The notes under the pieces are model-generated. The model did not search any database, had not been told where the DNA came from, and saw only the letters and a list, made by a program, of their open reading frames with translations. Source: Clostridiaceae bacterium BL-3 (GTDB lineage: Bacteria > Bacillota > Clostridia > Clostridiales > Clostridiaceae). From it: a DNA stretch of 64,000 nucleotides. The stretch is taken from positions 1,178,001 through 1,242,000 of the forward strand of contig CADDXC010000001.1 in assembly GCA_902809985.1 (NCBI GenBank), given 5' to 3'. Below, one piece after another: positions 24,263 to 41,797 of this stretch (position 1 is its first letter; every line of letters begins with the position of its first letter). Both the position numbers and the translations under genes were made by a program.

Positions 24263-24537
24263 GTACTCTCTCTCCTTTAATTTTATTCAGTAACGTTTTC
24301 AACTATATAAAAGTAGCATTTCTATTGTATATACTGTATTTATTTCATATTAGAAAAATATCAACGGGTTTTACCTTTAAATTATATCATAGACATCACA
24401 TGTCATTTTCTTCTTCATCTAATTTTTTTGATATTTTTTTCTACTACTAATTTTTTACACCCTACAGATCATTTCATGAAATTTCGAATAAAAAACTCCC
24501 TTAAGTAAAAGCTATGTTAATGAATGGAGGTGTCTTT

Positions 24538-24702
24538 ATGTCAAAATCAATACATGATAAAACTAAGGATATAAAACAAAAAAAAGGTAAAAATACTCAG
24601 CCTATAGGTAACAGTGACTTTGAATCAAAAACACGCTGGAAAGTTTACAGCAGTAAAAAGGGATATCAGATTTGTGGAAGGGATACTCATTCTGAACAGT
24701 AA
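24538..24702 (+). CDS. small basic protein of unknown function
   Basis: A 54-residue, lysine-rich, hydrophilic protein (MSKSIHDKTKDIKQKKGKN...) with no membrane segment. ATG at 24538 has GGAGGTG nine bases upstream; an earlier in-frame ATG at 24514 has no such site. It lies 59 bases before the secreted repeat-protein gene on the same strand. No family recognised. Confidence 0.55.
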   Translation: MSKSIHDKTKDIKQKKGKNTQPIGNSDFESKTRWKVYSSKKGYQICGRDTHSEQ

Positions 24703-24761
24703 TTTTCATGAGAAAGCTCCACCTAAATCTAACAATCACTTAATTTGAGGAGGTAGATAAA

Positions 24762-25376
24762 ATGCCAAAAAGAACTACTAAAATAATTGCCGGGTTAATT
24801 ACTTTAATTTTGTTAAATATCAGCCCTGTAATGGTTCATGCCCTGTCACCCGACAATGTGCCCATAACAAGTCAGACCGTTTTGAAAAGCAATAAAAATC
24901 ATAAACATCCTGATTATAAATTTCGTCTTGATAAACTAGTAAAAGATGGTATAATAACAAAAGATCAGGAAAACATAGTACTGAATTCAATAAAACATGA
25001 TGATTTCCGAAAATTTATGAAAGAGAAACATAAATGCTCTAAAAATAAATTAGATGTTCTAGTTAAAAATGGTACGATAACCAAGAAGCAAAAATCAGCC
25101 ATACAAAAGTTATTTTCCTCTTCCAGAAAACAGGGAAAAAATTTCAAAAATTATTTTAACAATGGGTTGAATGAATTAGTAACTAAGGGAACTTTAAATA
25201 AAGAGCAAAAAAATGCTGTACAAAATTTATTTATTTCCTGTAGAAAAGAACACATAAAAAATATGACTGAATTTTTCAGGAATAGATTGGATACTTTAGT
25301 AAGCAAAGGTACAATTACTAAAATACAAGAAAAATCCATAATAAAGAGTTTGACAGATTTTAGGCATACTTCATAG
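24762..25376 (+). CDS. secreted protein with four internal helical repeats
   Basis: The 204-residue product begins with a signal peptide (basic MPKRTTK, hydrophobic IIAGLITLILLNISPVMV, then HALS as probable cleavage region). The mature part is four repeats of about 35-45 residues built on the pattern LDxLVxxGTITKxQxxAI: LDKLVKDGIITKDQ, LDVLVKNGTITKKQ, LNELVTKGTLNKEQ and LDTLVSKGTITKIQ. No Cys pairs or catalytic motif. GGAGG precedes the ATG. Function unknown. Confidence 0.75.
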   Translation: MPKRTTKIIAGLITLILLNISPVMVHALSPDNVPITSQTVLKSNKNHKHPDYKFRLDKLVKDGIITKDQENIVLNSIKHDDFRKFMKEKHKCSKNKLDVLVKNGTITKKQKSAIQKLFSSSRKQGKNFKNYFNNGLNELVTKGTLNKEQKNAVQNLFISCRKEHIKNMTEFFRNRLDTLVSKGTITKIQEKSIIKSLTDFRHTS

Positions 25377-25411
25377 CTTTGTCCATAAATATATTTAATT
25401 TAAAATTTCAC

Positions 25412-25445
25412 ATGTTATTGCTGCTCGGCGAGGCAGCAATAACAT
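25412..25445. terminator. stem-loop between convergent genes
   Basis: ATGTTATTGCTGC pairs perfectly with GCAGCAATAACAT around a short GC-rich loop. It lies between the ends of the secreted repeat-protein gene and the sigma/anti-sigma fusion gene, as a shared terminator would, although neither side has a long T-run. Confidence 0.6.
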
Positions 25446-25472
25446 ATGGATACCTCAGAATGCAGACTTAAA

Positions 25473-27263
25473 TCACTCATTTAAATCTATTCTAAATTTT
25501 AGATCTTCTCTGAACTCAAAATTGCTGAGATCAGTCGTTTTTAAAGTATATTTCTTATTGGAATCCAGTGCTGGAAATACTATTGTAAATTCATTGGGAT
25601 GTTTATCATCCAATCTGTCAATATACCTCTTAGGAGCGAGATCTTTTCCAGAATTGTCTTTTACAAAGAGGTTGGTTGCCTGAAAATAGGGAGCCTTTCC
25701 AACGGCTGTAAATCTAATTGTAGTTGAATTGCTTTCAGTTTTAATTTCATTTATTATGAGTTTACCCATCCTGCCCTGGGGAAGTTCTATGGGATATTTT
25801 CCATCTATGACTCTGTATATTTCTTCAGGTTTATTCCCCTTCATCTTATATGAAACTTTTTTACCATTCTTGTCTGTATATGTTCCTCCTGCACCTGTAG
25901 AATAAATATTGCAGGGAATAACAGTCAAATATTTCGGGATACGTTTTACGCTCATATAATTCATCTCGGCAGAGAAAGTCCCTGGAAAATCACCAGTAAT
26001 ACCACCGCCTTTAGGCAGAAGCTGTACTCCATTATCATCAAAAACAATCCAGTAATTGTAGTTGAATACATTGTTATAAGAATTATTGGATGAATCAGAT
26101 ATATATTTTTTTGTTTTAACATTTCCACTTACAAAAATAGAGGTATCTATAGGGGAAAATACTATTTTGTCTATATTTGCAGTGCTGTCTGGCAAATCGA
26201 TTTTCTTATCTGGTTTAAATATACGGCTATTCTTAACCAGTTCATCTTTAGATATACTGAATTCAAAATTCCATTTACCTCTTATATTGGATAGTTCATC
26301 AATATTTAAATCCACATTGAAATTAGAAGAATTCTTGAATAAATCAGTATGAATTTCTTCAGTTCCCACGTAAGTGCAGCTGTTAATATAATTTCCAGAG
26401 GCAGAGCCAGTAGAACCATCTATATATTTTCCATTTATTTTTAAAAACCTAGATAGACTTGAAGATTCCAGGCCTTCAATTTTTTTATTGCTTTTTACAG
26501 TATAACCTATAATCAATTTTGAACCATCGGCCATGGCCTCATTTATGGTAAGAGTTACTCCATTGCTTGTAACACTTTTATTTATGAGCTGAGAATATTT
26601 AGAATAGTTTCCATGAGAACCCAATCTATCATTTAGAGTTTGAATTATAGAATTTAAAATTGGAATATTTTCGGCAAAAGCAGGAGAAACCATGCCTATA
26701 CCTGTAATACTGATTAAACTAATAGCTGCCGCAATTGAAGCACATTTTAGAAATTTAAAATTTCTCTTTCTGTTAATTCTTCTATTTAATCCATAGCTTT
26801 CTGCTATATTTTCTATATTTTCGCATAAAAAATACCTTCTTATAAATATTTGCTTATCCAGATCTTTCATATCATTTATTGCTCTCAAAATCTCTTTTCT
26901 ATTCTCTTTTGATATTATTGTATGTTCCGTATTAATATCACATTGGAAATCGTAGTTATCTACACTATCGTTTGTACTTTCATTGAAAAGTTTTCTTTTA
27001 TAATCTATAGCCTTATACTTTGCTATAGCAGTTATCCAGTATTTAAATTTCCCCTTTTCCGGATCAAAACTCCATATATTGTTCCAAACAGCCCAGAATA
27101 CATCATTAACACATTCTTCTGAGTGTTGAAGCTGAAATTTGGAATTCAGCACTGTCCGCACCACCTTAAAAACCAGATTGCTATATTTGTCCACTGCAAA
27201 TTCCAATGCTTTTGAATTTTTCTCTTTTATTTGTTCCACAAAATTATTTTCATCTATATTCAC
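25473..27263 (-). CDS. ECF sigma factor fused in frame to a DUF4179-type anti-sigma-like membrane protein
   Basis: One 596-codon frame. Residues 1-160 are an ECF sigma factor: region 2 (DKYSNLVFKVVRTVL, EECVNDVFWAVWNNI, GKFKYWITAIAKYKAIDYKR) and the first part of region 4 (LDKQIFIRRYFLCENIENIAESYGLN). At about residue 160, inside the region 4 helix-turn-helix, the sequence switches to RRINRKRNFKFLKC, a membrane helix (about 174-193), and a long extracytoplasmic domain like the DUF4179 anti-sigma proteins usually encoded just downstream of such sigma genes. The join looks like an in-frame deletion that removed the recognition helix and the N-terminal sigma-binding part. It may be nonfunctional as a sigma factor. 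Confidence 0.8.
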   Translation of the reverse strand: MNIDENNFVEQIKEKNSKALEFAVDKYSNLVFKVVRTVLNSKFQLQHSEECVNDVFWAVWNNIWSFDPEKGKFKYWITAIAKYKAIDYKRKLFNESTNDSVDNYDFQCDINTEHTIISKENRKEILRAINDMKDLDKQIFIRRYFLCENIENIAESYGLNRRINRKRNFKFLKCASIAAAISLISITGIGMVSPAFAENIPILNSIIQTLNDRLGSHGNYSKYSQLINKSVTSNGVTLTINEAMADGSKLIIGYTVKSNKKIEGLESSSLSRFLKINGKYIDGSTGSASGNYINSCTYVGTEEIHTDLFKNSSNFNVDLNIDELSNIRGKWNFEFSISKDELVKNSRIFKPDKKIDLPDSTANIDKIVFSPIDTSIFVSGNVKTKKYISDSSNNSYNNVFNYNYWIVFDDNGVQLLPKGGGITGDFPGTFSAEMNYMSVKRIPKYLTVIPCNIYSTGAGGTYTDKNGKKVSYKMKGNKPEEIYRVIDGKYPIELPQGRMGKLIINEIKTESNSTTIRFTAVGKAPYFQATNLFVKDNSGKDLAPKRYIDRLDDKHPNEFTIVFPALDSNKKYTLKTTDLSNFEFREDLKFRIDLNE

Positions 27264-27351
27264 ATTTTTCCTCCTTAAGAAGCTTTCATAATTTAATACG
27301 AAGCCATGATAGATTTTCTGACATCAGATTTTGTACTTTGATTGTAAACAT

Positions 27352-27384
27352 AAAAAACTAGCTTAATCAATGCACTAAGCTAGT
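27352..27384 (-). terminator. intrinsic terminator of the BREX operon
   Basis: On the minus strand ACTAGCTTA and TAAGCTAGT form a 9-bp stem followed at once by TTTTTTA. It lies about 70 bases past the stop of the last pglX gene. Confidence 0.8.
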
Positions 27385-27453
27385 ATCATTCTGAATATAT
27401 ATTCAATATTTTTATCTTCCGGAATCAATATAAAATATTCACTGAAATCAACA

Positions 27454-28620
27454 TTATATTTTGGCCAGCAAATTCATTTCAACTTTTTTCCCGCTGGAAT
27501 CAATGACTTCAACTCCCTGAAATCTGGCATAGTTTGCTTTAACTCCTTCATCTAGATCAATTCGTATTCTCTTATTTGCCAGGTGCGCCGCAGCCCGGTC
27601 ATATTCCCTGCACTCTTCCATCTGCTTCTTTATCCTATATATTTTCTTCTTAGCAGAATTTCTCTCTCTTGATGAATAATCTTCCGAATCAACTATAAGC
27701 CTCTGTCTCTCAATTTCAGTCCCATATTTTCTCTGAAGCACGTGCAGATAATCCATCCTGACTTTAGCTACAGTCTGATCGCTGTACCTGTGTATATAAA
27801 TAAGCGCCTTGAATCCGTTGCTTTTCCCGGAATCGAAGAGCCAGTAAATAGGTCTCTTCTTATAGTTCTTTACATGATCACTGTAAAATTCTCCGACAAA
27901 ATATCTCCTAAGCGACTGCCTTGCCGTTTCAGAAGATTTCCTCCCTATGGAATCGGCTATAAAATCCAGATTTTCCTCCAAAGTGTCTTCCCCGTACACA
28001 ATCTTCACAAATTTGATAAATTTTGAAACTATGTCATCTTCAAAATACTCATCTTCCGTAATGGGAATGAAATTGTCCCTGTCAGGAGCAAAGGTGGCAT
28101 CTGTCCAAAAGTCCGATATGACATTTCCGTCATTGTCTCTCTCTATTTTTCTAACCTGCCAGGTTTCTCCTCCAGGCTGTGAATTGCCCACCCTAAAATG
28201 AGAACTGAACTCACCTCCCGCATATATAAGACCTTCTACATCAACGGAGTACCTGCCGAACATGCATCCTACAGCATAGGATATAAATGATTTTATGTCC
28301 CTCTCTCTGTCCGCCTTTCTGACAGTAACATCCCTATCCTCCTCTTCAGGTACAATCTCCTCCTGAAGCCCATAGATACGGATGAATATCCCGTTAAGCT
28401 CTTCTTCATTATGCTTTAACTGCTGAAACTGCCTGTCTGCAAAGGACTTCCATATATCAAAAGCATCGGATAAGCGGGTGGTTTTAAGCGGATAGTTATT
28501 AGTACTTCTCCTATTCCCATTGCCTGCCGTGAGCTTTCCGCTATCGGCCAGTAAAAGTGGGTGAATTTTAAAATCCCAGGACGTTTCAAAAGAATCCCAG
28601 TCATTCTTTGAAATTTCTAT
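27454..28620 (-). repeat. direct repeat, 3' arm of the two pglX genes
   Basis: These roughly 1167 bases are nearly identical to 33635-34801, with scattered substitutions, and have the same orientation. They encode the shared C-terminal part of PglX. Identity ends abruptly at the codons for IEISKNDWDSF. Confidence 0.88.
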
Positions 28621-31200
28621 ATTGTTTCTGGTTAATTCCATAATGTCTCTTTTGATGTCACTATTGTCATGTAAAATCAATGGTATTTTCTTAATATCTC
28701 CAACCTGAAAATTAATTGTAGGTGCTATTATCTTTAAAACCTCATAGGTAATTTTCGAATTCATCAATGCCAAGACATATTCAAGAAAAGTTTCTTTAGG
28801 AAATATTGAGGAGCCTCCTACATCAAACAAAAAACCTTGCTGACTTAATCTTGCTGCAAAATTAAAAGTACTAACTAGAGACCAGGTTACTCCCTTTTTA
28901 AAATAAAAATCTTCATTTCTTATTACTGATGATTTATAGTTTTTAATTTCATATCCATTGTGCTTCCAGTTGACGACAAATTCATTATTACCATACCACT
29001 TTCTAAAATCTCCTCCCTTATTATATGGGAACCACTTCTTCGAACTCTTTTCTGCAGTACTTGCATTTTTATATCTTATACCCATAGAATCTCTGTTTAC
29101 CTCAAACCATAACCTTGTAAATCTGTTATTGTCTGCTGTTGCCATTCCCTGTTTCGGCTCTGCAATATTACCCAAAGGTACTGCATTCTCAAATAACTTT
29201 TTCATATTATCACTAATCCAATATGCTATTGGACAGCCAGGTAAACATTTGAATACACCTTTACTGCAATCATATATTCCAAGACCACTTTTTATAATAC
29301 TTATCGTTTTTACTTCTTTTTCCCTGGATGACATATTCACTAATCTAATGTATCTACCTTTATATTTGCTGTTGACAAACTTTCTTTGAACAAAAGCAGT
29401 AGATTGTACAACTTCCCCGGCTATTTCATAAAATGTTCTAGCACCTAAATGCAGCATGTTTATCGTAACTTCATTATCCAGCATCTTTTTTCTCAATTTA
29501 TAATAGGATGATAAAAACATCCATGAATGCTGACTGATCACGGCATATATACAATTATCACCTGAGAACGAACTCAATTTTTCCATAAATACAGAGAACA
29601 AATCATATTTTGAATCATTGAATTTGTCTTCCAGGTATATTTTTAGATTGCTATTCATACCTTTTCTTCCTAAATAGGGCGGATTAGTAGCACAGATTTC
29701 ATATTTCCTGCCCATTATCTCAGCCTGCTTCACCAACGCTCCCATCCTGTCTAAAAGTATGCTTTTATAATCTGCAAACATCAGATTATCTTCCCCGGCT
29801 ATCTCCTCAAGTCTCTGCTCTAATAATTCAAAATCAACCTTTTCAACTTCAATTATGGAGCCATACTCCCCGGCATCTTTAAAGGTTTCAATTAAATACT
29901 TAACATCCTCCTTCAGCTGTACACTGTGTCCTGTGGATTGTGAATTGCAGAAGTACTCCACTGCTTCTCTGCCAGTTCCATCTAAAAACTCATTACTTTC
30001 CTGTATGGAGCACAGATTGAGTTCCAGTTCATTTTTCTCTATATCCCTAAACAGCCTCCTGTTGTATTGTCTTGCCTTCATTATAAGTGCAAATGAAGCC
30101 AGCTGTACTGCCCTCTCGTCTATATCCAGCCCGTACAGATTGTTTTCAAGTATAAGCCTTGGTATTTTCCTCTCCAAATACCCTTCCCTCTTGTATATTT
30201 CATAGAATACTTCAAAGGCATAAACCAGTATATGTCCCGAGCCCATACATGGATCCAGCACTTTTATATCCTCAGGTCTGAATTTGCCGTATTGTTCTCT
30301 TATACTCTCCAGTTCTTCCTCAACTTCTGGCTCCTGCCCGGTTTCTTCAATATAATACTTCCATTTTCCCTGCAGTTCTGCATCCGGGTGACCCTCAAGC
30401 CACAGCCTTCCCAATGAATTCTCAACCATGTATTTAACTATCCAGTCAGGAGTAAAAAGCTGTGTTGCGGCAGGTATATTCTCTTTTGTTATTTTTACAT
30501 TTTTCTTAAGTGCTGCAAACACCTTATCCTTCTTCTCGGATATATAGTACTGGTACATCCATCCTATTATTTCCACTCCCTCTTTCCAGTCATCTTCCGG
30601 TATCTCCTCCACCATCTTCCCTATCACGGAACCCTTATCAAGAAGATGACCAGGAAAGAGCAGCTCCGTATAATCACTTATTTTCTCAAACATCTGGGGC
30701 ATTATACTGCCAAGTTCACTGCACTGTTTTATCAATATGTATTTATAAGCTTCTTCTCTATCTTCAGCTTTTCCACTGTCCAGAAGCCCATATACACTGT
30801 CTCCATCAAGTTTTAATTCCTCTATTGTCTCTGAAATTCTAAAAAGTACATCCGGTTCATTTTTTCCCTCTATTGAAGAAAGTATTCTCACACCAAGGGG
30901 AAGATAATTGTTAACTTCCATATACCTAAGTGCCATAAATCTGTTAAACCAGGTATAGGCAGCCTCCTCCATGACTGGCTTGAACCCCCTTCTCCTTACC
31001 TGCCCTACAAGGGCATCTCTCTGATTCTTTGGAAGCTTGAATATGTCTCCACTTTCATTTAATTTGAATCCGCCCTGGATTTCCACTGCAGTGTCTATTT
31101 TCTGCCCGCCTACACCTATCAGGTTGGCTTTTTCACTAACTGCTTCTATTAAATTTTCCCTGGCCCATACGGCAAATGCCTTTATTTTATTTTTATCCAC
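27454..31200 (-). CDS. pglX: BREX adenine-specific DNA methyltransferase PglX, second copy
   Basis: The 1248-residue protein has SAM motif I DPCMGSGHILVYAFE and catalytic NPPY at residues 506-509, as in PglX of type 1 BREX, which methylates adenine in a non-palindromic site to mark host DNA. Residues 1-509 and 861 to the end are almost identical to the other pglX (33635-37336), but residues 510-860 are largely different, as expected if they form the target-recognition part. The start is GTG with AGGAG upstream. It is the last gene of the operon, 44 bases after pglZ. Confidence 0.9.
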   Translation of the reverse strand: MDKNKIKAFAVWARENLIEAVSEKANLIGVGGQKIDTAVEIQGGFKLNESGDIFKLPKNQRDALVGQVRRRGFKPVMEEAAYTWFNRFMALRYMEVNNYLPLGVRILSSIEGKNEPDVLFRISETIEELKLDGDSVYGLLDSGKAEDREEAYKYILIKQCSELGSIMPQMFEKISDYTELLFPGHLLDKGSVIGKMVEEIPEDDWKEGVEIIGWMYQYYISEKKDKVFAALKKNVKITKENIPAATQLFTPDWIVKYMVENSLGRLWLEGHPDAELQGKWKYYIEETGQEPEVEEELESIREQYGKFRPEDIKVLDPCMGSGHILVYAFEVFYEIYKREGYLERKIPRLILENNLYGLDIDERAVQLASFALIMKARQYNRRLFRDIEKNELELNLCSIQESNEFLDGTGREAVEYFCNSQSTGHSVQLKEDVKYLIETFKDAGEYGSIIEVEKVDFELLEQRLEEIAGEDNLMFADYKSILLDRMGALVKQAEIMGRKYEICATNPPYLGRKGMNSNLKIYLEDKFNDSKYDLFSVFMEKLSSFSGDNCIYAVISQHSWMFLSSYYKLRKKMLDNEVTINMLHLGARTFYEIAGEVVQSTAFVQRKFVNSKYKGRYIRLVNMSSREKEVKTISIIKSGLGIYDCSKGVFKCLPGCPIAYWISDNMKKLFENAVPLGNIAEPKQGMATADNNRFTRLWFEVNRDSMGIRYKNASTAEKSSKKWFPYNKGGDFRKWYGNNEFVVNWKHNGYEIKNYKSSVIRNEDFYFKKGVTWSLVSTFNFAARLSQQGFLFDVGGSSIFPKETFLEYVLALMNSKITYEVLKIIAPTINFQVGDIKKIPLILHDNSDIKRDIMELTRNNIEISKNDWDSFETSWDFKIHPLLLADSGKLTAGNGNRRSTNNYPLKTTRLSDAFDIWKSFADRQFQQLKHNEEELNGIFIRIYGLQEEIVPEEEDRDVTVRKADRERDIKSFISYAVGCMFGRYSVDVEGLIYAGGEFSSHFRVGNSQPGGETWQVRKIERDNDGNVISDFWTDATFAPDRDNFIPITEDEYFEDDIVSKFIKFVKIVYGEDTLEENLDFIADSIGRKSSETARQSLRRYFVGEFYSDHVKNYKKRPIYWLFDSGKSNGFKALIYIHRYSDQTVAKVRMDYLHVLQRKYGTEIERQRLIVDSEDYSSRERNSAKKKIYRIKKQMEECREYDRAAAHLANKRIRIDLDEGVKANYARFQGVEVIDSSGKKVEMNLLAKI

Positions 31201-31222
31201 GGCTGCTTTTCTCCTAACTCAT
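29683..31222 (-). repeat. direct repeat, 5' arm of the two pglX genes
   Basis: These roughly 1540 bases are nearly identical to 35819-37358 in the same orientation. They cover codons 1-509 and the ribosome site just upstream of the GTG. Identity ends at the NPPY codons. Confidence 0.88.
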
Positions 31223-31244
31223 CGAAATTCATGTATATCTTCTT

Positions 31245-33620
31245 TCAGAAATCAAACTCATCAGCTGCAGAAACATCAATGGTATATGGTATTTTTTCAT
31301 AAATTTTATTACTTTCATCAGCATCTTGAATTATCAAAAAATACTGCTCTTTTTTGTCATAGTGCATACTTTTTAAAACGAATTTTTCCCTGTACGTTCT
31401 TTCTTTAGGATTTTCCGATACAGAATTTCCAATTATGATATTTTCATTTGATATTCTATTCCCATCTTTATCCTCAAAATAACATTTTATTTTTTGTACA
31501 ATAACTTTATCTTGAATTCTTTCCTCCTGAAAAAATTCAAGATAAATAATAATATTCGTAATCTTTCGGGATATACTTGTAAGTGATATTTTTGCTTTTC
31601 TTATATCATTGACTGAAAATGCACTTCTGTCGTTTTTAAACTTAATGAGTGGAATCACCATTTCCTGGAGCATAGCTCCATCATGAACATAATTGACACA
31701 TGATATTTTATCGCTTTTCTGAATTCCGCTTCTCCTGTACAGATAGCCATGATCTGCCGTTATGATTATACTTGCAGCACTAACTCTATTTACAAGCTTA
31801 TTTACAAGTGAAATTATCTCATCAAAAGCAAGTTCTGTTGCCGAGAATACGTCTCCTTCAGTTTTACAATTGTCTCCCATGGTATCTACTTCATCATGGT
31901 AAATATAAACCACATCCATTCCGACAAAGTTTTTCCTGATTTCAATATCATTCATAACCATGACATCATCATATCTAACTGCCAGGGACTTAGGATCTTT
32001 ATCTTTTAAAATTAAATCCCTATTTTCAGTTCCACTGCTGTTAATTCCGTCTACCAACACATCGTATTTATCATCGATCTCTACTTTTGTATTTGGAAGC
32101 AGAGATGCCATACCAAGTTTTGTACAGGAAGGAATTACTCCCTGCATGTATTCAATTTCAACTTTCCCTTTTCTCCCATTGTTAAGCCTTACAAAAAGTT
32201 CCCTGGCACTTTCGTATCTAAGTCTATCAGAAATTATTACAAATACTCTTTCTTTAGAAGGTTCAACAAATTTTTCATAAAATTTATTCTGCCAGTTTAA
32301 GCCCTCTATTCTCCAGTTCTTATTCCCTTCTAAAGAATTAAACCATTTAATGGACAGTTCCTTCAAATACCAGTTGTTATATAAATTCTCAACTATCTCT
32401 TTTAAATCCTTCAGTTCATCTTTACATTTACAGCTGTCATAGTGATAATAAAATTTTCTATAAGCCTCATCAAAATAATAATATCTATCTACATAGGATT
32501 TAAACATATCGAAGGAGGATTCTTCCTTTATATTTGAATTGAGCTTCTCTTTTTCATTTAACATATTTATAGTCCACTTTAATGTCTTATATTCATTTTC
32601 ATATTTTCTATAAAAATGTGCAGTTCTTCTCCTGCTTATAATACTCAAATATCTGCTGTATTCACCTACTCCATTTTCTAAAAGATTGCTGATTCTCAGT
32701 AATATAATCCTATCAATTTCATCAAAAATATCACAGTCAATAAAAGTATCCAAACTATTTTTATTTAAAAGCATATTTATTTTCAATTTATTTGAAATAA
32801 GCTGCTGCATTTTGTCGTAGTGTTTTTCATCTACACTGCTGTTCATAAAATGATTAACAAATACTATACAGTTTGTTTTTTTAGAAGATATGAGTGTTTT
32901 ATATTGTTTTGGAATCTGAAAGCTGATGGCACTTTCCATATTGGTGATCAGAAGCATTGCCATAAACATGCCCAGGTTCCTCTTTTCAAATCCATACCCG
33001 TAGTACTTTGTTATCAGATCCCAAAGTGAATTCAAATTTCCAAATTTGCCTATGCTCTCATAGATTTTATTTTCGCCATCTAAATAGTCCTTTAATATGG
33101 ACTTTAATATTTCTTCCATATCCATAATTTTAACTTTAGTTAAAACTGCAAGGACTCCAATATCAATCTTTTCTTCAGTATAATCCTCTATACTTAAATT
33201 TTTAAAAGCAGTTATTCTCTCTTTACTCCTAAAAAAAGCATTATAAAATTTAAATTTTTCTTTAAAAGAAGGATCTTTTATATTGAGTTCCCTCATTATC
33301 ACAGCAGCTCTATCTGTAGAAAATTCTTCACTATAACGATAAATATCATAGAGCCAATCTTCCTGAGGCAGTGGCTTTTCCAAATTTGAATATATAAGTA
33401 TATTGTCAGTTGTATTTTCTTTTTCTATATAATATTTAAATTTAAAGGCATTTCTGTCTGTAAGTTTGATTATTTTTACAGATTTAATGTCCAAATCGTC
33501 TATATCTTCGATAAAATCTTTGTTACTGTCATACCAAAATACAATATGACGTCTTTTTCCATATCCCAGCGGCTTTGAAAATAATTGTTTCAAAAAATTT
33601 TTTACTTTCTGTAAGTTCAT
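31245..33620 (-). CDS. pglZ: BREX alkaline-phosphatase-fold protein PglZ
   Basis: The 791-residue protein has a C-terminal PglZ domain with RVFVIISDRLRYESARELF (metal motif), TKLGMASLLPNT and ITADHGYLYRR near residues 450-660, the alkaline-phosphatase superfamily core seen in all BREX systems. The N-terminal half is helical. Length and position next to pglX fit type 1 BREX. GGAGG precedes the ATG. It lies between the two pglX copies. PglZ is known to be essential for BREX methylation and defence, though its reaction is unsettled. Confidence 0.9.
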   Translation of the reverse strand: MNLQKVKNFLKQLFSKPLGYGKRRHIVFWYDSNKDFIEDIDDLDIKSVKIIKLTDRNAFKFKYYIEKENTTDNILIYSNLEKPLPQEDWLYDIYRYSEEFSTDRAAVIMRELNIKDPSFKEKFKFYNAFFRSKERITAFKNLSIEDYTEEKIDIGVLAVLTKVKIMDMEEILKSILKDYLDGENKIYESIGKFGNLNSLWDLITKYYGYGFEKRNLGMFMAMLLITNMESAISFQIPKQYKTLISSKKTNCIVFVNHFMNSSVDEKHYDKMQQLISNKLKINMLLNKNSLDTFIDCDIFDEIDRIILLRISNLLENGVGEYSRYLSIISRRRTAHFYRKYENEYKTLKWTINMLNEKEKLNSNIKEESSFDMFKSYVDRYYYFDEAYRKFYYHYDSCKCKDELKDLKEIVENLYNNWYLKELSIKWFNSLEGNKNWRIEGLNWQNKFYEKFVEPSKERVFVIISDRLRYESARELFVRLNNGRKGKVEIEYMQGVIPSCTKLGMASLLPNTKVEIDDKYDVLVDGINSSGTENRDLILKDKDPKSLAVRYDDVMVMNDIEIRKNFVGMDVVYIYHDEVDTMGDNCKTEGDVFSATELAFDEIISLVNKLVNRVSAASIIITADHGYLYRRSGIQKSDKISCVNYVHDGAMLQEMVIPLIKFKNDRSAFSVNDIRKAKISLTSISRKITNIIIYLEFFQEERIQDKVIVQKIKCYFEDKDGNRISNENIIIGNSVSENPKERTYREKFVLKSMHYDKKEQYFLIIQDADESNKIYEKIPYTIDVSAADEFDF

Positions 33621-33634
33621 TGTTTACCTCCACA

Positions 33635-36600
33635 TTATATTTTAGCCAGCAAATTCATTTCAACTTTTTTCCCGCTGGAATCAATGACTTCAACTCCCTG
33701 AAATCTGGCATAGTTTACTTTAACTCCTTCATCTAGATCAATTTGTATTCTCTTATTTGCCAGGTGCGCCGCAGCCCGGTCATATTCCCTGCACTCTTCC
33801 ATCTGCTTCTTTATCCTATATATTTTCTTCTTAGCAGAATTTCTCTCTCTTGATGAATAATCTTCCGAATCAACTATAAGCCTCTGTCTCTCAATTTCAG
33901 TCCCATATTTTCTCTGAAGCACGTGCAGATAATCCATCCTGACTTTAGCTACAGTCTGATCGCTGTACCTGTGCATATAAATAAGCGCCTTGAATCCGTT
34001 GCTTTTCCCGGAATCGAAGAGCCAGTAAATAGGTCTCTTCTTATAGTTCTTTACATGATCATTGTAAAATTCTCCGACAAAATATCTCCTAATGGACTGT
34101 CTCGCCGTTTCAGAAGATTTCCTCCCTATGGAATCGGCTATAAAATCCAGATTTTCCTCCAAAGTGTCTTCCCCGTACACAATCTTCACAAATTTGATAA
34201 ATTTTGAAACTATGTCATCTTCAAAATACTCATCTTCCGTAATGGGAATGAAATTGTCCCTGTCAGGAGTAAAGGTGGCATCTGTCCAAAAGTCCGATAT
34301 GATGTTCCCGTCATCGTCTCTCTCTATTTTTCTAACCTGCCAGGTTTCTCCTCCAGGCTGTGAATTGTTCACCCTAAAATGAGAACTGAACTCACCTCCC
34401 GCATATATAAGACCTTCTACATCAACGGAGTACCTGCCGAACATGCATCCTACAGCATAGGATATAAATGATTTTATGTCCCTCTCTCTGTCCGCCTTTC
34501 TGACAGTAACATCCCTATCCTCCTCTTCAGGTACAATCTCCTCCTGCAGTCCATAGATACGGATAAATATCCCGTTAAGCTCCTCTTCATTATGCTTTAA
34601 CTGCTGAAACTGCCTGTCCGCAAAGGACTGCCACATATAAAAAGCATCGGATAAGCGGGCAGTTTTAAGTGGATAGTTATTAGTATATCTCATATTCCCG
34701 TTGTCTGCCGTGAGCTTTCTACTATCGGCCAGTAAAAGTGGGTGAATTTTAAAATCCCAGGACGTTTCAAAAGAATCCCAGTCATTCTTTGAAATTTCTA
34801 TACATTTTTTCACTAATAAATTTATGAATCCTATATTAGAATCACTTAATTCAATTACCGGCAATCTTTTTATATCTATATTTTGATAATCCTGGCCATC
34901 ACTGAACATAGATAATATATAATTTGTGACAGAGCTGTTCATAAATCCTATATATAAATAAAATTTTTTATTATCCATAACAAAAAGTGCTGGGCCTTTC
35001 TTGTCAAAAGTACCTGTTTTAGGTAAAATTCGTGCTGAAAATTTGGATGTTGTAGTAGCAGTCCACGTAATTCCCTTTCTAAAAACATACTTTTCATTTA
35101 TCATATTTGACGTCCTATTGGATTTATAAAAATTTTTAGCAGCATCTGACCAGTCGACCAGCATCTCAATATTGCCATACCATTTTCTATAATTTCCTCC
35201 CTTGGCATATGTTATCCATCTCTGTCCTATTGAAAATTTATTAACTTCCCACAGCATTCTCAAATATCTATTATTATCAGCTGTAATGTGTTGGCTTCCT
35301 GTTATATCGATTTTACTTTCAAATTTGCTGCCCTCAATAAATACATTAAGCATGGTCTCATTAGCCCAGTATGCAATAGGACTTCCCAATATATTTTCAA
35401 AATCATTCTGTTTCAGTTTTATATATACATTATTTTTATTAAAAAACTCTATTCTTTTCTTCATTGGATCCATGTATTGAACTAGCCTGATAAAAGTTGG
35501 TTTAAAATTATCAATCCTTTTCTTTCTAAAAATATAAGATGCCACTTTAACTTTTTCACCTTTGATATCACTAAATGCCCCTGCTCCAAATTGAACCAAT
35601 GTTTCTATATTTACATTTTTTATGATATATTTTCTAAGTCGTTCATAACTTGTTAAAAACATCCATGACTGTTGAGTTATCAATGCTGTAAATACACTCG
35701 AAAATCTAATGCACACTTCGATAAATACAGCAAACATATCCAATTTAGACTTCTCGAACTCACTTGATATTCTTTTAGATAAATTATTATTCATCCCTCT
35801 AAATCCCATATAGGGCGGATTAGTAACACAGATTTCATATTTCCTGCCCATTATCTCAGCCTGCTTCACCAACGCTCCCATCCTGTCTAAAAGTATGCTT
35901 TTATAATCTGCAAACATCAGATTATCTTCCCCGGCTATCTCCTCAAGTCTCTGCTCTAATAATTCAAAATCAACCTTTTCAACTTCAATTATGGAACCAT
36001 ACTCCCCGGCATCTTTAAAGGTTTCAATTAAATACTTAACATCCTCCTTTAACTGTACACTGTGTCCTGTGGATTGTGAATTGCAGAAGTACTCCACTGC
36101 TTCTCTGCCAGTTCCATCTAAAAACTCATTACTTTCCTGTATAGAGCACAGATTGAGTTCCAGTCCATTTTTCTCTATATCCCTAAACAGCCTCCTGTTG
36201 TATTGTCTTGCCTTCATTATAAGTGCAAATGAAGCCAGCTGTACTGCCCTCTCGTCTATATCCAGCCCGTACAGATTGTTTTCAAGTATAAGCCTTGGTA
36301 TTTTCCTCTCCAAATACCCTTCCCTCTTGTATATTTCATAGAATACTTCAAAGGCATAAACCAGTATATGTCCCGAGCCCATACATGGATCCAGCACTTT
36401 TATATCCTCAGGTCTGAATTTGCCGTATTGTTCTCTTATACTCTCCAGTTCTTCCTCAACTTCTGGCTCCTGCCCGGTTTCTTCAATATAATACTTCCAT
36501 TTTCCCTGCAGTTCTGCATCCGGGTGACCCTCAAGCCACAGCCTTCCCAATGAATTCTCAACCATGTATTTAACTATCCAGTCAGGAGTAAAAAGCTGTG

Positions 36601-37336
36601 TTGCGGCAGGTATATTCTCTTTTGTTATTTTTACATTTTTCTTAAGTGCTGCAAACACCTTATCCTTCTTCTCGGATATATAGTACTGGTACATCCATCC
36701 TATTATTTCCACTCCCTCTTTCCAGTCATCTTCCGGTATCTCCTCCACCATCTTCCCTATCACGGAACCCTTATCAAGAAGATGACCAGGAAAGAGCAGC
36801 TCCGTATAATCACTTATTTTCTCAAACATCTGGGGCATTATACTGCCAAGTTCACTGCACTGTTTTATCAATATGTATTTATAAGCTTCTTCTCTATCTT
36901 CAGCTTTTCCACTGTCCAGAAGCCCATATACACTGTCTCCATCAAGTTTTAATTCCTCTATTGTCTCTGAAATTCTAAAAAGTACATCCGGTTCATTTTT
37001 TCCCTCTATTGAAGAAAGTATTCTCACACCAAGGGGAAGATAATTGTTAACTTCCATATATCTAAGTGCCATAAATCTGTTAAACCAGGTATAGGCGGCT
37101 TCCTCCATAACTGGCTTAAACCCCCTTTTCCTTACCTGCCCTACAAGGGCATCTCTCTGATTCTTCGGAAGCTTGAATATATCTCCACTTCCATTTAATT
37201 TGAATCCGCCCTGGATTTCCACTGCAGTGTCTATTTTCTGCCCGCCTACACCTATCAGGTTGGCTTTTTCACTAACTGCCTCTATTAAATTCTCTCTGGC
37301 CCATATGGCAAATACCTTTATCTTATTTTTATCCAC
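33635..37336 (-). CDS. pglX: BREX adenine-specific DNA methyltransferase PglX, first copy
   Basis: The 1233-residue copy shares with the second pglX the N-terminal 509 residues (motif I DPCMGSGH, catalytic NPPY at 506-509) and the C-terminal region from residue 846, but has its own segment at 510-845. That segment includes TNPPYMGFRGMNNNLSKRI and HITADNNRYLRMLWEV, related but not equal to the other copy. Start is GTG, as in the duplicate. It follows brxC after 25 bases and precedes pglZ by 14. Both copies look intact, so the cell may make two PglX specificities. Confidence 0.92.
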   Translation of the reverse strand: MDKNKIKVFAIWARENLIEAVSEKANLIGVGGQKIDTAVEIQGGFKLNGSGDIFKLPKNQRDALVGQVRKRGFKPVMEEAAYTWFNRFMALRYMEVNNYLPLGVRILSSIEGKNEPDVLFRISETIEELKLDGDSVYGLLDSGKAEDREEAYKYILIKQCSELGSIMPQMFEKISDYTELLFPGHLLDKGSVIGKMVEEIPEDDWKEGVEIIGWMYQYYISEKKDKVFAALKKNVKITKENIPAATQLFTPDWIVKYMVENSLGRLWLEGHPDAELQGKWKYYIEETGQEPEVEEELESIREQYGKFRPEDIKVLDPCMGSGHILVYAFEVFYEIYKREGYLERKIPRLILENNLYGLDIDERAVQLASFALIMKARQYNRRLFRDIEKNGLELNLCSIQESNEFLDGTGREAVEYFCNSQSTGHSVQLKEDVKYLIETFKDAGEYGSIIEVEKVDFELLEQRLEEIAGEDNLMFADYKSILLDRMGALVKQAEIMGRKYEICVTNPPYMGFRGMNNNLSKRISSEFEKSKLDMFAVFIEVCIRFSSVFTALITQQSWMFLTSYERLRKYIIKNVNIETLVQFGAGAFSDIKGEKVKVASYIFRKKRIDNFKPTFIRLVQYMDPMKKRIEFFNKNNVYIKLKQNDFENILGSPIAYWANETMLNVFIEGSKFESKIDITGSQHITADNNRYLRMLWEVNKFSIGQRWITYAKGGNYRKWYGNIEMLVDWSDAAKNFYKSNRTSNMINEKYVFRKGITWTATTTSKFSARILPKTGTFDKKGPALFVMDNKKFYLYIGFMNSSVTNYILSMFSDGQDYQNIDIKRLPVIELSDSNIGFINLLVKKCIEISKNDWDSFETSWDFKIHPLLLADSRKLTADNGNMRYTNNYPLKTARLSDAFYMWQSFADRQFQQLKHNEEELNGIFIRIYGLQEEIVPEEEDRDVTVRKADRERDIKSFISYAVGCMFGRYSVDVEGLIYAGGEFSSHFRVNNSQPGGETWQVRKIERDDDGNIISDFWTDATFTPDRDNFIPITEDEYFEDDIVSKFIKFVKIVYGEDTLEENLDFIADSIGRKSSETARQSIRRYFVGEFYNDHVKNYKKRPIYWLFDSGKSNGFKALIYMHRYSDQTVAKVRMDYLHVLQRKYGTEIERQRLIVDSEDYSSRERNSAKKKIYRIKKQMEECREYDRAAAHLANKRIQIDLDEGVKVNYARFQGVEVIDSSGKKVEMNLLAKI

Positions 37337-37361
37337 GGCTGCTTTTCCCCTAACTCATCTG

Positions 37362-40300
37362 TTATATCAAATTTATTATGGTATTGTCTTTCAGTTCCTC
37401 CTTCAACTTACCTCTTAGAAACTCCACCACTTCATCTATATCTTGGACATTCTTTATAATTTTCTGACCCTTCACCAGTTCTCTCATGCTCAGAGTCTTT
37501 ATTTTCACAACAATTTCAGGCCCTCTATCATTGTTCCTTTGCATTTTTTGAACTTTTTCTTCAACTATTATCTTCACCCATTTAAGTTTGACCTTCTCTG
37601 CCAAATCGGACATAGAAGCTATCACTGCAAAATTATCCGCACTTTCAACTCTATTGTAAAGATCTTCAAACTCCCCTCTTACCTTGTCTTCAAATATACT
37701 TTTGAAGCTGCATGTTTTCAAGACATCAAAAACTTGATCTCTGCACTTTTCTATGAATTCTTTTATTGGAATGCTCTTTTCTTCCAAAAGTACTACTACT
37801 TTGTCATTGTACTTTTCTATTAGAACAGGCAGTTCATGTATTCGAGAATAAGGTCTTTTCATTTTGAGTATCTCTCTTATTTTCTTCATAATCACATTCA
37901 TGTCATCATCTATTATATATTCCTTATTTACATCATAATTTTTCAGTTTTTCCACAGCTCTGTCAAATATAATTTTCTGTTCACCTGTAGAAGAAAAGTC
38001 AATCACACCATTTTCTTTCTTATAAAAAAATGCTTTTATATCATCCACATCATCTTCATAATCCAGAAAATTCTCTTCAAGATCATATATTCTTTTGAAG
38101 AATTCCACTGTATCCGTGATCTCCATTATTTTCTGAAATAATCTTTTTCCCAATTGCAGAACCTCTTCTCCAGGATAACGCGTTCTAGAAGAAAATTTAA
38201 CAAGCATTTCGTTGATCTTAGAGAGCTCATTTTTACATTCTCCTTTGAATATATCCATTATTCCATCCTCATCAGAGGGAAGGGACAGAAAATTAAACAT
38301 ATCCCTGCTTAAATCTCTTACCGTATCTACATATTTCTGGCTTACTCTCTCTCTGATCTTCAATATTGTCCTTTCAACATATTCCCTTTTGGTAACATAA
38401 TGCACTATTTCCCTATCATTGGGGCTAATTACCTCCCCATTTAATATCACCTTGATACACTGTTTTTTAAACAACTCTATTATAACAGCAGCTATATCTA
38501 AACCCTTCCATCCATAAGGAGGGTTTGAAAATTTAGCCAATACAGTTTTAACTGTAACCTGAAGATTTCTGGATGAACTGATCTGTATATGATTTTGTAT
38601 CTCATCCACCGCTAGTTTATTTGGATTTGTATCTGCAATCTCCATCTGGTTAAATTTTTTATCCACAATATCATAAAGTTCTTTTACACTATTAGTAAAT
38701 TTTTCTACATAATTCAGCTTGTTGTATTTGGAATTCACCAATATTCTCAATCCACTGTTCATTCTGTCTATAGGATTCTTTTCATTTATATCTACTAAAC
38801 TTCCATTTATGTATATAGGTGCTTTTTCCATTGACCCTTCTATTAAGAATTTAGCCCTTTTAGCTCTTTCTCCTCTTTCCCTGCTTTTTTTTACCTTGAT
38901 ATCTTCTACGGCAGCACTGGATTTTATACCGCTTTTAATTCTGAGATACTCATCTATCTTCAACATGTTTTCTATTTCATCAAGATATGAATAATCCTGT
39001 GAAATATCTAAAATAACGTTACCTTCCCTGACAGATAGAAGTTTTAATTCGGCCTCACTGGAATCACGGGGCAGTTCAAAACTTGGAGTTATTACCCTCA
39101 CTCCTATTTCATTTATCTGAGAACCAATTGTTCTGTCATCTACTATTTTATTAAAAGTAAATTGATACCTTCTCGAATAGGAAAATTTAGCGCCATTATA
39201 TATATCATCAAAAATGATTTCAGAAATCTTATGTGTGACTTTTCCAATATCCACGGGCATGTTGTTTATTTCTCTATTTACATCCTGTTCATCATTTGTG
39301 AGAAATACATACTCTTCTCCATTTTTCTGAATGAGTGTCTGCCTCATAAGTTTCTTCAAAGAAATCTGTACATCTTTTTTTATATGCAATTTATCTGCAT
39401 CTATTCTATTTACCAACAGTGTAGATATATTTTCTATATTTGCTTTTATTTCTTTTACATACTTTAAAAGAAATAGCAGTTTCAAAACTTTCACGTCAAA
39501 GGCATCTAATTTTTCATTTTTTTCTGCATAAATTACAACTGATCTAATGGAGGAGTCCAGAAAGATCTCTATAGTTTTGTAAAAGGAGGAAAAAGGGACA
39601 AGCATCCTTGTATCTTCTTCCATATAATCCACCGCAACCTGCTGATATGCCCCCAGCAAACTTCTCTCTCCCCTGGATAGACTCTTACCGGATGCCCCAT
39701 GTTCCCTCACTCCATTGAATACAGATTGAATGAGATTAAACTGATAGGGTATAAAAGGATAGACTTCTGCAAATTCCTTTTCATTCCTGTAAATTTTCAT
39801 TTCTGCAGTATCTGATGTAAAAGTCAGCAGGTTTTTTATTATTGATTCCTTCTGCTCATATAACAATCTCAAATAACTTTCGGCAGTATTTTTTTTCCTA
39901 AGTATACGTTTTTTTATTACCTCGTCAACATTTGCAGAAGACAGTGAAAGCCGGATATTAAATCTTCCCTGAATTTTAGAAAAATCATTTCCCTTTACTT
40001 TTGTAAATTCATCCAGACCCTCCTGTGAAGTGACAACAACCCAGCACTTTCCACCACATTTAGTACCGAGATCTTCCACCAGAGTCTGGAGGTTTAACAT
40101 GAGTTTTGTATTATCTCCAATATATTGTCCCATTTCGTCTACCATAAATATAACATGATGGTTTTTTCCCTTTGATTTAATGTATTCTTTTACCCTAGAT
40201 GTAAATTTATCTATGCTAAGTGAATAATTTTCTTCACATTTATTGTACCAATTCCTTGCAGATTTTTCACTCATCTTTGTAGTTTCAGATAACGACTTTA

Positions 40301-40928
40301 CAATTGAATCCTCCTCATAATAAAAATCCTCTCTTGATTCAAGCCATGACTTTCCGGACATCTCTTTAAAAAATCTTTTAAATTTCTCATATACACCGTC
40401 TTTAACCATCTGCCGTTCCATATTCGCTATCCATGGCATTGATCCACAAAAACCCTGCATTTCACTAAACACTTTATTAAACACATTTACAATGGCATCT
40501 TTATTCGATTTAGAATCCGCCTCTGATTTGGAGTCTATATTAAAAAGAATTACATCGGTCGGGGTATCCCCAGCCAGTTTCATATTCTCAAGAGTAAAAT
40601 TATCCAATCCCTTGTCACTAAAATAATCAATAGCATTTTTACCATCTATAATTTTATTCTCCAAAAGATAGGATAATATTTTCAAAAGGTGGGACTTACC
40701 GCTTCCAAAGAATCCTGAAATCCACACCCCGTTCTTATCCGTATCTTCCAGTATACTGGTTTTATACATTTCAAAAAACTCATCTATGTGTTTCTTTAAC
40801 TCACTGGTTACAACATATTCATCTAGTTCCTGTTTTACATTTTCATCATCTTCCTGCCCAACTTTGATAACACCTTTTATATCCCTGTCTATTTCTTTAT
40901 AAAACATATCCTTCAAAATAAATTTCAT
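37362..40928 (-). CDS. brxC: BREX P-loop ATPase BrxC
   Basis: About 1188 residues from ATG 40928, which has GGGGGAG upstream; an in-frame TTG at 40952 would overlap brxB. It begins MKFILKDMFYKEIDRDIKGVI, typical of BrxC, has Walker A GFFGSGKS at 72-79 and a Walker B-like VIFMVDEMGQYIG near 270, then a long helical body. BrxC is the large AAA-type ATPase of BREX needed for methylation and defence. Length fits type 1. It follows brxB with minimal spacing. Confidence 0.92.
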   Translation of the reverse strand: MKFILKDMFYKEIDRDIKGVIKVGQEDDENVKQELDEYVVTSELKKHIDEFFEMYKTSILEDTDKNGVWISGFFGSGKSHLLKILSYLLENKIIDGKNAIDYFSDKGLDNFTLENMKLAGDTPTDVILFNIDSKSEADSKSNKDAIVNVFNKVFSEMQGFCGSMPWIANMERQMVKDGVYEKFKRFFKEMSGKSWLESREDFYYEEDSIVKSLSETTKMSEKSARNWYNKCEENYSLSIDKFTSRVKEYIKSKGKNHHVIFMVDEMGQYIGDNTKLMLNLQTLVEDLGTKCGGKCWVVVTSQEGLDEFTKVKGNDFSKIQGRFNIRLSLSSANVDEVIKKRILRKKNTAESYLRLLYEQKESIIKNLLTFTSDTAEMKIYRNEKEFAEVYPFIPYQFNLIQSVFNGVREHGASGKSLSRGERSLLGAYQQVAVDYMEEDTRMLVPFSSFYKTIEIFLDSSIRSVVIYAEKNEKLDAFDVKVLKLLFLLKYVKEIKANIENISTLLVNRIDADKLHIKKDVQISLKKLMRQTLIQKNGEEYVFLTNDEQDVNREINNMPVDIGKVTHKISEIIFDDIYNGAKFSYSRRYQFTFNKIVDDRTIGSQINEIGVRVITPSFELPRDSSEAELKLLSVREGNVILDISQDYSYLDEIENMLKIDEYLRIKSGIKSSAAVEDIKVKKSRERGERAKRAKFLIEGSMEKAPIYINGSLVDINEKNPIDRMNSGLRILVNSKYNKLNYVEKFTNSVKELYDIVDKKFNQMEIADTNPNKLAVDEIQNHIQISSSRNLQVTVKTVLAKFSNPPYGWKGLDIAAVIIELFKKQCIKVILNGEVISPNDREIVHYVTKREYVERTILKIRERVSQKYVDTVRDLSRDMFNFLSLPSDEDGIMDIFKGECKNELSKINEMLVKFSSRTRYPGEEVLQLGKRLFQKIMEITDTVEFFKRIYDLEENFLDYEDDVDDIKAFFYKKENGVIDFSSTGEQKIIFDRAVEKLKNYDVNKEYIIDDDMNVIMKKIREILKMKRPYSRIHELPVLIEKYNDKVVVLLEEKSIPIKEFIEKCRDQVFDVLKTCSFKSIFEDKVRGEFEDLYNRVESADNFAVIASMSDLAEKVKLKWVKIIVEEKVQKMQRNNDRGPEIVVKIKTLSMRELVKGQKIIKNVQDIDEVVEFLRGKLKEELKDNTIINLI

Positions 40929-40948
40929 TTTTTTGTCTCCCCCATAAT

Positions 40949-41530
40949 TCAATACTTATCTATTAATTGAAATGCCCTGTAATAGTTGTCATCTTTTAAA
41001 ATATTAAACAGCATTAGGGAGCCTCCATCATAGGTGCCTGGAAAAAACATAACAAGAGGTTGTTTTTCTATAACTCTATGCAGGTTGTTTAACACTCCAT
41101 ATGATCCGATTATAGGCCATGATTTTCCAACTCCAGTTAAAAATATTATATCGCTTCCGCCAATCCTGTCTGCTATATACCCTACCATAAGATCATTTTT
41201 CAATGTAAGTCTAAGAGCTTTCTTGGTTGCATTTAAAACATATTTGCTTCCTTTTTTTTTCTCCATCTCAAAGTTTTTTTCAAGATATCCCTTTGATTTT
41301 AAAATGTTCAAAATAATATCATAAAGGTCAAACTCGATTATATTGAGCCCATAGGCTTTTTTTGCCTTTTCCTCTATAAATTTAACTCTATCCCTAATTA
41401 AAAGCTCATATTTAGGATCATAATCAAAAATATAAAATCCTATTTCATCTCCAAGTCCCTTATTCTGTCTGAAATACGGATCAGCTATCCGTGGTAATAT
41501 TTCATCGATCCTCTTATGTATATCCTTCAT
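40949..41530 (-). CDS. brxB: BREX protein BrxB (DUF1788)
   Basis: The 193-residue protein starts MKDIHKRIDEILPRIADPYF and contains DIIFLTGVGKSWPIIGSYGVLNNLH and PLVMFFPGTYDGGSLMLFNIL, which fit the DUF1788/BrxB family. It is the first gene of the operon here; the usual brxA (DUF1819) before it is absent, since the next upstream gene is a divergent secreted peptidase. BrxB function is unknown beyond being needed for BREX. The ribosome site is rather distant (GGAG about 14 bases before ATG). Confidence 0.88.
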   Translation of the reverse strand: MKDIHKRIDEILPRIADPYFRQNKGLGDEIGFYIFDYDPKYELLIRDRVKFIEEKAKKAYGLNIIEFDLYDIILNILKSKGYLEKNFEMEKKKGSKYVLNATKKALRLTLKNDLMVGYIADRIGGSDIIFLTGVGKSWPIIGSYGVLNNLHRVIEKQPLVMFFPGTYDGGSLMLFNILKDDNYYRAFQLIDKY

Positions 41531-41797
41531 ATTTTATCTCAATCTCCTACGCGGTCCAATTTTATAGTAATTATTATATCACAAATAATAATACCTTCTA
41601 CAGAACCTTGTAAATTCAGAACCTGATTTAACCAACAATGAATTTCTTTCACAATAAATATAATTGAAGGCAAAAAATTTACAATATGGTAATATTATTA
41701 CCACGATTTTGTAATATATTAGCGAGAAACTATTGTATATCAAGTAGTTTTTATATACTCATTTTTTATAAATATAATGGAAGGGGGAAATTAATCA

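What the first reader, a model, noticed from the sequence alone, without database searches (positions are those of the whole stretch)
27454..41530. Reduced BREX operon: brxB-brxC-pglX-pglZ-pglX without brxA or brxL
The five genes match BREX core families and run in one direction to a terminator. Type 1 BREX normally also has brxA first and brxL (Lon-like) last, and BrxL has been reported as needed for defence in the E. coli system. Here brxB is first, a divergent peptidase gene follows upstream, and a terminator follows the second pglX. A system keeping both modification and PglZ but lacking the usual effector, with a second PglX in its place, may be a distinct BREX variant or a methylation-only remnant.
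Basis: partly seen in the sequence, partly recalled or inferred. Interest (0 to 1): 0.8.

Follow-up and report, generated by a model that had tools for sequence, protein, structure and literature searches.

The report
BREX locus stripped to DNA marking
A Clostridium bacterium carries a phage-defence (BREX) gene cluster that lacks two of the usual genes and a piece of a third but has a second DNA-marking enzyme, so it may now only mark the cell's own DNA instead of fighting phages.

Summary
The five-gene locus is real: brxB-brxC-pglX1-pglZ-pglX2, 27454-41530, minus strand. BrxA and BrxL profiles find nothing in the whole genome; the same searches find BrxA in 22 of 22 and BrxL in 21 of 22 PglZ-carrying family relatives. 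It is not a conserved five-gene system: of 52 related loci testable for both genes, none lacks both.

(1) PglZ has a 56-residue in-frame deletion beside its metal site, in none of the complete relatives compared; the metal residues remain, but a structure model loses confidence exactly there, and a control model does not. (2) The two PglX share nearly identical ends (98.7% and 96.9% DNA identity) around a middle, with the recognition domain, about 33% identical. (3) A third, orphan PglX sits elsewhere in the genome.

Published E. coli work: BrxB+BrxC+PglX+PglZ suffice for methylation, and nuclease-dead PglZ still supports it. I favour a type-1-derived, methylation-only BREX with two specificities (0.5). 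Rivals: a dead remnant, or a BrxL-independent defence. One genome, no methylation data. New variant of a known kind; interest 0.45.

The parts
40949..41530 (-). brxB, 193 aa; the two residues shown to hold the PglZ:BrxB contact in E. fergusonii (R46, W135) are kept as R46 and W138
   Evidence: PF08747 E 6.9e-40; PDLC02463 225 bits; residue mapping
37362..40952 (-). brxC, AAA+ ATPase, 1196 aa from TTG (an ATG start 8 codons on is likely, by eye); Walker A and Walker B present
   Evidence: NF033441 1231 bits; motifs at residues 83 and 270; single copy in the genome
33635..37336 (-). pglX1, adenine methyltransferase, 1233 aa; SAM motif and NPPY intact
   Evidence: NF033452 1365 bits; NPPY at 506
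31245..33620 (-). pglZ type A, 791 aa, with a 56-residue in-frame deletion after residue 641 (around window 31700) relative to relatives of about 850 aa; T500 and H646 (E. fergusonii T538, H741) kept; VHGG reads VHDG
   Evidence: model confidence
27454..31200 (-). pglX2, 1248 aa; first 500 codons 98.7% and last 362 codons 96.9% identical in DNA to pglX1, middle diverged; NPPY intact
   Evidence: NF033452 1449 bits
27357..27384 (-). possible intrinsic terminator after pglX2 (11 pairs, T-rich tail)
   Evidence: the number of such sites in the region is not above chance
41585..41614 (-). possible promoter upstream of brxB (TTTACA-18-TATTAT, 10 of 12)
   Evidence: consensus match only
24289..41671 (.). 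stretch present here where the congener G127 has only 69 bp: BREX plus the genes 25473-27263 and 24762-25376
   Evidence: alignment of the window with L158

Best explanation
A type 1 BREX locus that has lost its defence output and kept its DNA-marking machine. BrxB, BrxC, PglZ and either of two PglX proteins form the multi-subunit adenine methyltransferase known from E. coli. PglX1 and PglX2 share the parts that dock on the complex but carry different recognition regions, so the cell's DNA is probably marked at two different six-base motifs. BrxL is gone, and PglZ, the other candidate effector, has lost 56 residues of its nuclease domain and probably serves only as a scaffold. Shown: gene content, genome-wide absence of BrxA and BrxL, the PglZ deletion, the mosaic PglX pair. 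Inferred: complex formation, methylation, two motifs, loss of nuclease and of defence.
For: BrxA and BrxL absent, with positive controls. In E. coli BrxB+BrxC+BrxX+BrxZ without BrxA and BrxL are enough for methylation (PMC11842806 section 13 read), and deleting brxL keeps methylation but abolishes defence while deleting brxA changes neither (PMC6326788 passages). Nuclease-dead E. fergusonii PglZ (T538A/H741A) loses about 3 logs of defence and no methylation (PMC12205998 section 34 read). The deletion lies between the DHG motif and that same histidine: spacing 22 residues against 74-82 in the 73 complete relatives. The AlphaFold model falls to block means of 48, 40 and 47 at residues 581-590 and 631-650, where an intact relative has 80, 80 and 81. 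The rest of the machine looks maintained: all five frames open, NPPY and Walker motifs present and BrxB contact residues kept, and the two pglX copies differ mostly silently (dN/dS 0.09 over 500 codons, 0.34 over the last 362).
Against: No methylation data. BrxA is required for methylation in Acinetobacter (PMC9122589 passages) and, as a review states, in Salmonella (PMC12839542 passage). The metal-site residues T500 and H646 are still there, so some nuclease activity cannot be excluded. Outside the deletion PglZ is not evolving faster than its partners: substitutions at otherwise invariant sites are 33 of 336 in PglZ, 39 of 436 in BrxC, 8 of 95 in BrxB, 13 of 232 in PglX, and they are not concentrated in the catalytic domain. 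In Salmonella BrxL is dispensable for defence. Low dN/dS between the pglX copies may date from before the losses or reflect gene conversion. One genome only.
Confidence: 0.5

Rival explanations
1. A dying remnant: a once complete type 1 BREX that lost brxA, brxL and part of pglZ and now does nothing; the second pglX is an accident of duplication.
For: Several independent losses in one locus relative to its close relatives; the window differs from them at otherwise invariant sites more often than 8 of the 9 do for BrxB, BrxC and PglZ, with G201 higher; BrxA is needed for methylation in some systems.
Against: All five frames are open and full of conserved motifs; the two pglX copies differ under purifying selection; the pglX cassettes have near-identical leaders and ends, which points to recent, tidy copying.
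Confidence: 0.27
2. A still defending, BrxL- and BrxA-independent BREX with two specificities, in which PglZ keeps enough activity or another host factor is the effector.
For: Salmonella BREX defends without BrxL, for some phages better (PMC11341690 passages); BrxL is missing from 24% of type 1 loci in a published survey (PMC12839542 passage) and from 15 of 86 testable loci here; metal residues of PglZ kept.
Against: The 15 brxL-less loci include none that also lacks brxA among those testable for both, and no complete PglZ compared has this deletion; no other match to the PADLOC library in the flanking genes tested beyond a weak NUDIX-type hit.
Confidence: 0.18
3. An assembly artefact: the 1.1-1.5 kb near-identical pglX ends misled the assembler, and a pglZ piece or brxL was lost in silico.
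For: Long direct repeats 6.1-6.2 kb apart; no reads were available.
Against: The PglZ deletion lies outside the repeats and is in frame; BrxA and BrxL are absent from the whole assembly, rated 100% complete with 3.1 Mb in one contig; relatives' BrxL finds no remnant better than E 1.5 in the window.
Confidence: 0.05

Closest known systems
Type 1 BREX (brxA-brxB-brxC-pglX-pglZ-brxL), e.g. E. fergusonii pEFER, E. coli HS, Salmonella D23580
   Same: brxB, brxC, pglX and pglZ type A in the same order; the same curated families score best
   Different: no brxA or brxL in the genome, shortened PglZ, a second full pglX after pglZ
brxL-less type 1 loci, e.g. Clostridium sp. KNHs214 (L106), Anaerosalibacter bizertensis (L098), Lentibacillus kapialis (L091)
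   Same: no brxL within 5-10 kb after pglZ
   Different: they keep brxA where testable and have a full-length PglZ; one pglX each
BREX loci with two pglX: L112, L125 and L133 here; pglX duplications are cited from the original BREX survey in PMC11842806 (passage)
   Same: two pglX N-terminal halves in one locus; in L133 one lies after pglZ
   Different: in L112 and L125 both lie before pglZ; the shared-ends, divergent-middle design was not tested there
BrxBCXZ complex of E. coli BREX
   Same: the gene set kept here is the set sufficient for methylation (PMC11842806 section 13)
   Different: there it was made by removing genes; here it is natural and has two PglX and an altered PglZ

Membership tests
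BREX superfamily | PglZ-domain protein | tested here: met
   PF08665 183 bits, TIGR02687 617 bits
BREX superfamily | BrxC/PglY ATPase in the same locus | tested here: met
   NF033441 1231 bits
Type 1 BREX | PglX of the type 1 family | tested here: met
   NF033452 best in both copies; types 2, 5 and 6 models below cut-off
Type 1 BREX | BrxB | tested here: met
   PF08747 136 bits
Type 1 BREX | BrxA (DUF1819) | tested here: not met
   no match in the genome; 22 of 22 relatives match. In print 4% of canonical loci lack it (PMC12839542 passage)
Type 1 BREX | BrxL | tested here: not met
   no match in the genome; 21 of 22 relatives match. In print 24% of type 1 loci lack it
Type 1 BREX | intact PglZ catalytic domain | tested here: inconclusive
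   metal residues kept, 56 residues missing next to them, model uncertain there
Type 1 BREX | PglX-dependent m6A and phage exclusion | not testable with these tools
   needs long reads and phage tests
Type 5 BREX | second BrxC | tested here: not met
   one BrxC in the genome
Type 2, 3 and 6 BREX | PglW, BrxF, BrxD or BrxH genes in the locus | tested here: not met
   none among the five genes or the four flanking genes scanned against PADLOC; not searched genome-wide; the gene lists of these types are partly recalled

The most novel reading that the evidence does not exclude
A natural, stably kept 'modification-only BREX': the multi-subunit PglX methyltransferase has been freed from defence, with PglZ turned from nuclease into scaffold, and carries two interchangeable recognition regions so that one machine writes two m6A marks. 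It would be a whole-genome epigenetic writer built from a defence system, in a genome that also holds an orphan PglX.
Probability: 0.35. Interest if true: 0.72.

Novelty: new variant of a known kind. Interest (0 to 1): 0.45.

Why it matters
How BREX stops phages is unsettled: BrxL is needed in some systems and not in others, and PglZ has only recently been shown to be a nuclease. A natural locus that keeps exactly the genes sufficient for methylation, and has lost BrxL and a piece of PglZ's nuclease domain, is a ready-made separation of marking from exclusion. If the native DNA is methylated, the deleted PglZ segment is shown to be dispensable for methylation, which no published mutant tests as far as searches show. 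The paired PglX with common ends and different middles also suggests a direct test of which PglX parts set the motif.

Tried and rejected
Conserved new BREX subtype: rejected; no second locus with this gene set among 91 compared.

brxA or brxL hidden nearby or as remnants: tblastn of five relatives' BrxA and five BrxL against the whole window gave nothing better than E 0.95; genome-wide profiles negative.

The second PglX as a replacement effector: rejected; it is a near-copy of PglX1 with no added domain.

Peptidase or sigma-factor neighbours as parts of the system: rejected for the peptidase, whose segment is kept next to an empty site in G127; the sigma gene and the 204-aa gene lie inside the 17.4-kb stretch absent from G127 but have no PADLOC match.

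Gene-specific decay of PglZ beyond the deletion: tested, not found.

Phase variation by inversion: the two pglX are direct, not inverted, repeats, so simple recombination would delete pglZ rather than switch genes; gene conversion could still exchange the middles. Not tested further.

Limits. The conservation count used an ORF picker that demanded the HGG motif; it was repeated without that demand (74 of 102 loci given a usable, non-duplicate PglZ, 17 missed; L118 is cut by its contig end). brxL absence in relatives was judged within the stretch held (at least 5 kb after pglZ), not genome-wide, except for the 22. L077 and L079 share a near-identical PglZ and were both counted in the 91. The original BREX survey (EMBO J 2015) is not held and is cited only through another paper.
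Full report
WHAT IS THERE. Five minus-strand ORFs fill 27454-41530. Profiles name them BrxB, BrxC, PglX, PglZ type A and PglX. The genome is 3.86 Mb in 7 contigs, rated 100% complete.

WHAT IS MISSING. BrxA (PF08849) and BrxL (PF13337) find no match in the genome. In the family, 206 genomes were searched with the window's PglZ and 23 match, the window's own included. Over these 23, BrxA matches 22 and BrxL 21; the window's genome is the only one without BrxA, and it and G174 are the only ones without BrxL. No remnant of either gene is visible in the window.

IS THE ARRANGEMENT SHARED? A scan of genome contigs returned 80 loci (the best 80 of 504). With the non-duplicate loci of the family set this makes 91. 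Of 86 testable for brxL, 15 lack it. Of 54 testable for brxA, one (L143) lacks it. Of 52 testable for both, none lacks both. A second pglX N-terminal half occurs in three (L112, L125, L133), and after pglZ only in L133, which has brxA and whose brxL cannot be judged because the contig ends. So lack of brxL is common, as a published survey also says (76% of type 1 have BrxL, 96% of canonical loci BrxA; PMC12839542, passages), but the combination here was not met elsewhere.

THE PglZ DELETION. The window's PglZ is 791 aa; 20 of 20 relatives aligned carry a further stretch of about 56 residues after residue 641, and all 22 relatives match in two pieces around it. In one search the stretch is 59-71 residues in 89 relatives and 9 in the window. 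That call's ORF picker favoured intact motifs, so it was repeated: the spacing between the DHG motif and the next metal histidine is 22 in the window, 74-82 in 73 relatives, and 47 in one (L118) cut by its contig end. Aligned with E. fergusonii PglZ, T538 and H741, the residues whose mutation removes nuclease activity, correspond to T500 and H646 and are both kept. The residue after H646 is D where 73 of 73 relatives with a residue there have G. AlphaFold2 models built from the same 30 sequences: the window's PglZ has mean pLDDT 86.4 but under 50 at 578-586, 632-647 and the C-terminus; the intact PglZ of L106 has mean 88.9 and falls under 50 only at its C-terminus. The fold search finds the BREX PglZ structures first and then PorX. 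So the fold is kept and the metal site is probably disturbed; loss of activity is inferred, not shown.

THE TWO PglX. Codons 1-500 differ at 20 of 1500 bases (15 silent, 5 replacement; dN/dS 0.09) and the last 362 codons at 34 of 1086 (15 silent, 19 replacement; dN/dS 0.34). Between residues 506 and about 830 of PglX1 the proteins are about 33% identical (114 of 342 columns, summed). In Salmonella PglX the recognition domain is residues 662-849 (PMC11341690, passages), and phmmer aligns it to the same part of PglX2. The 25 bp before each start codon and several bases after each stop are also nearly alike. The simplest reading is one cassette copied to the brxL position, with a different recognition region. 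Whether the motifs differ is inferred.

SURROUNDINGS. In the congener G127 the flanks of the window meet with 69 bp between them (homology ends at window 24288 and 41672): the BREX genes, a sigma-factor-like gene and a 204-aa gene lie in a stretch absent there. In G130 homology ends at the same 41672. The BREX genes are closest to loci of other genera (63-70% PglZ identity) and only 45-47% to the same-genus L041 and L042, as expected for horizontal acquisition, though no mobile-element gene was looked for.

HOW IT MOST LIKELY WORKS. In E. coli, cells making only BrxB, BrxC, BrxX and BrxZ methylate phage DNA (PMC11842806 section 13); deletion of brxA changes nothing and deletion of brxL removes defence only (PMC6326788, passages). 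PglZ mutants without nuclease activity methylate normally (PMC12205998 section 34). The locus keeps the methylating set and lacks or has damaged both candidate effectors. I therefore favour a methylation-only complex with two specificities (0.5). Against it: BrxA is required for methylation in Acinetobacter (PMC9122589, passages); PglZ's metal residues remain; and PglZ shows no faster change than BrxB and BrxC outside the deletion (33 of 336, 8 of 95 and 39 of 436 private changes at invariant sites; PglX 13 of 232).

NOVELTY. Loss of brxL, rarer loss of brxA, and pglX duplication are each in print. The combination with a shortened PglZ was not found in the searches made, which cover only open-licence papers. 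It is filed as a new variant of a known kind: a BREX-superfamily locus derived from type 1 that fails two type 1 features.

Noticed in passing
L166:8396-11974 (own genome C1:1644898-1648473): An orphan PglX (1192 aa, 42% to PglX2, PADLOC PglX 1250 bits) between aspartase/HydF and YibE/TerC genes, with no hit above 70 bits to BrxA, BrxB, BrxC, PglZ or BrxL within the 19.5 kb held. Close matches (60-75%) exist in 8 of the 12 other genomes of the genus; 7 of the 8 have the same YibE neighbour, and five of the 8 genomes have no PglZ match. A vertically kept solitary BREX-type methyltransferase.
   Followed up: partly
L106, L089, L091, L098, L099, L115, L116, L136 and others: brxL-less type 1 loci recur in Firmicutes; many run straight from pglZ into unrelated-looking genes with no obvious replacement helicase (judged from ORF starts by eye).
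   Followed up: partly
window 25473-27263 (-): One ORF joins a sigma-70 region 2 domain to DUF4179 and DUF5643, which looks like a sigma factor fused to its membrane-side regulator.
   Followed up: no
L032 14395-17607 region, L036 1946-5140 region, L096 12955-17411: ORFs of about 1070, 300 and 107 aa beside BREX look by eye like cas9, cas1 and cas2; not tested with profiles.
   Followed up: no
L154, L155 (G130): The close congener G130 has its own BREX with BrxA and BrxL, with PglZ only 37% identical to the window's, on other contigs.
   Followed up: partly
window 24482-24709: A 228-bp stretch 88% identical to a place in G130, and similar short matches across the genus; may be a small repeat element.
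   Followed up: no
E. fergusonii pEFER and other relatives: Cargo genes between brxC and pglX or between pglX and pglZ are common (DUF262 gene in pEFER, several in L031-L036, L039); the window has none.
   Followed up: no
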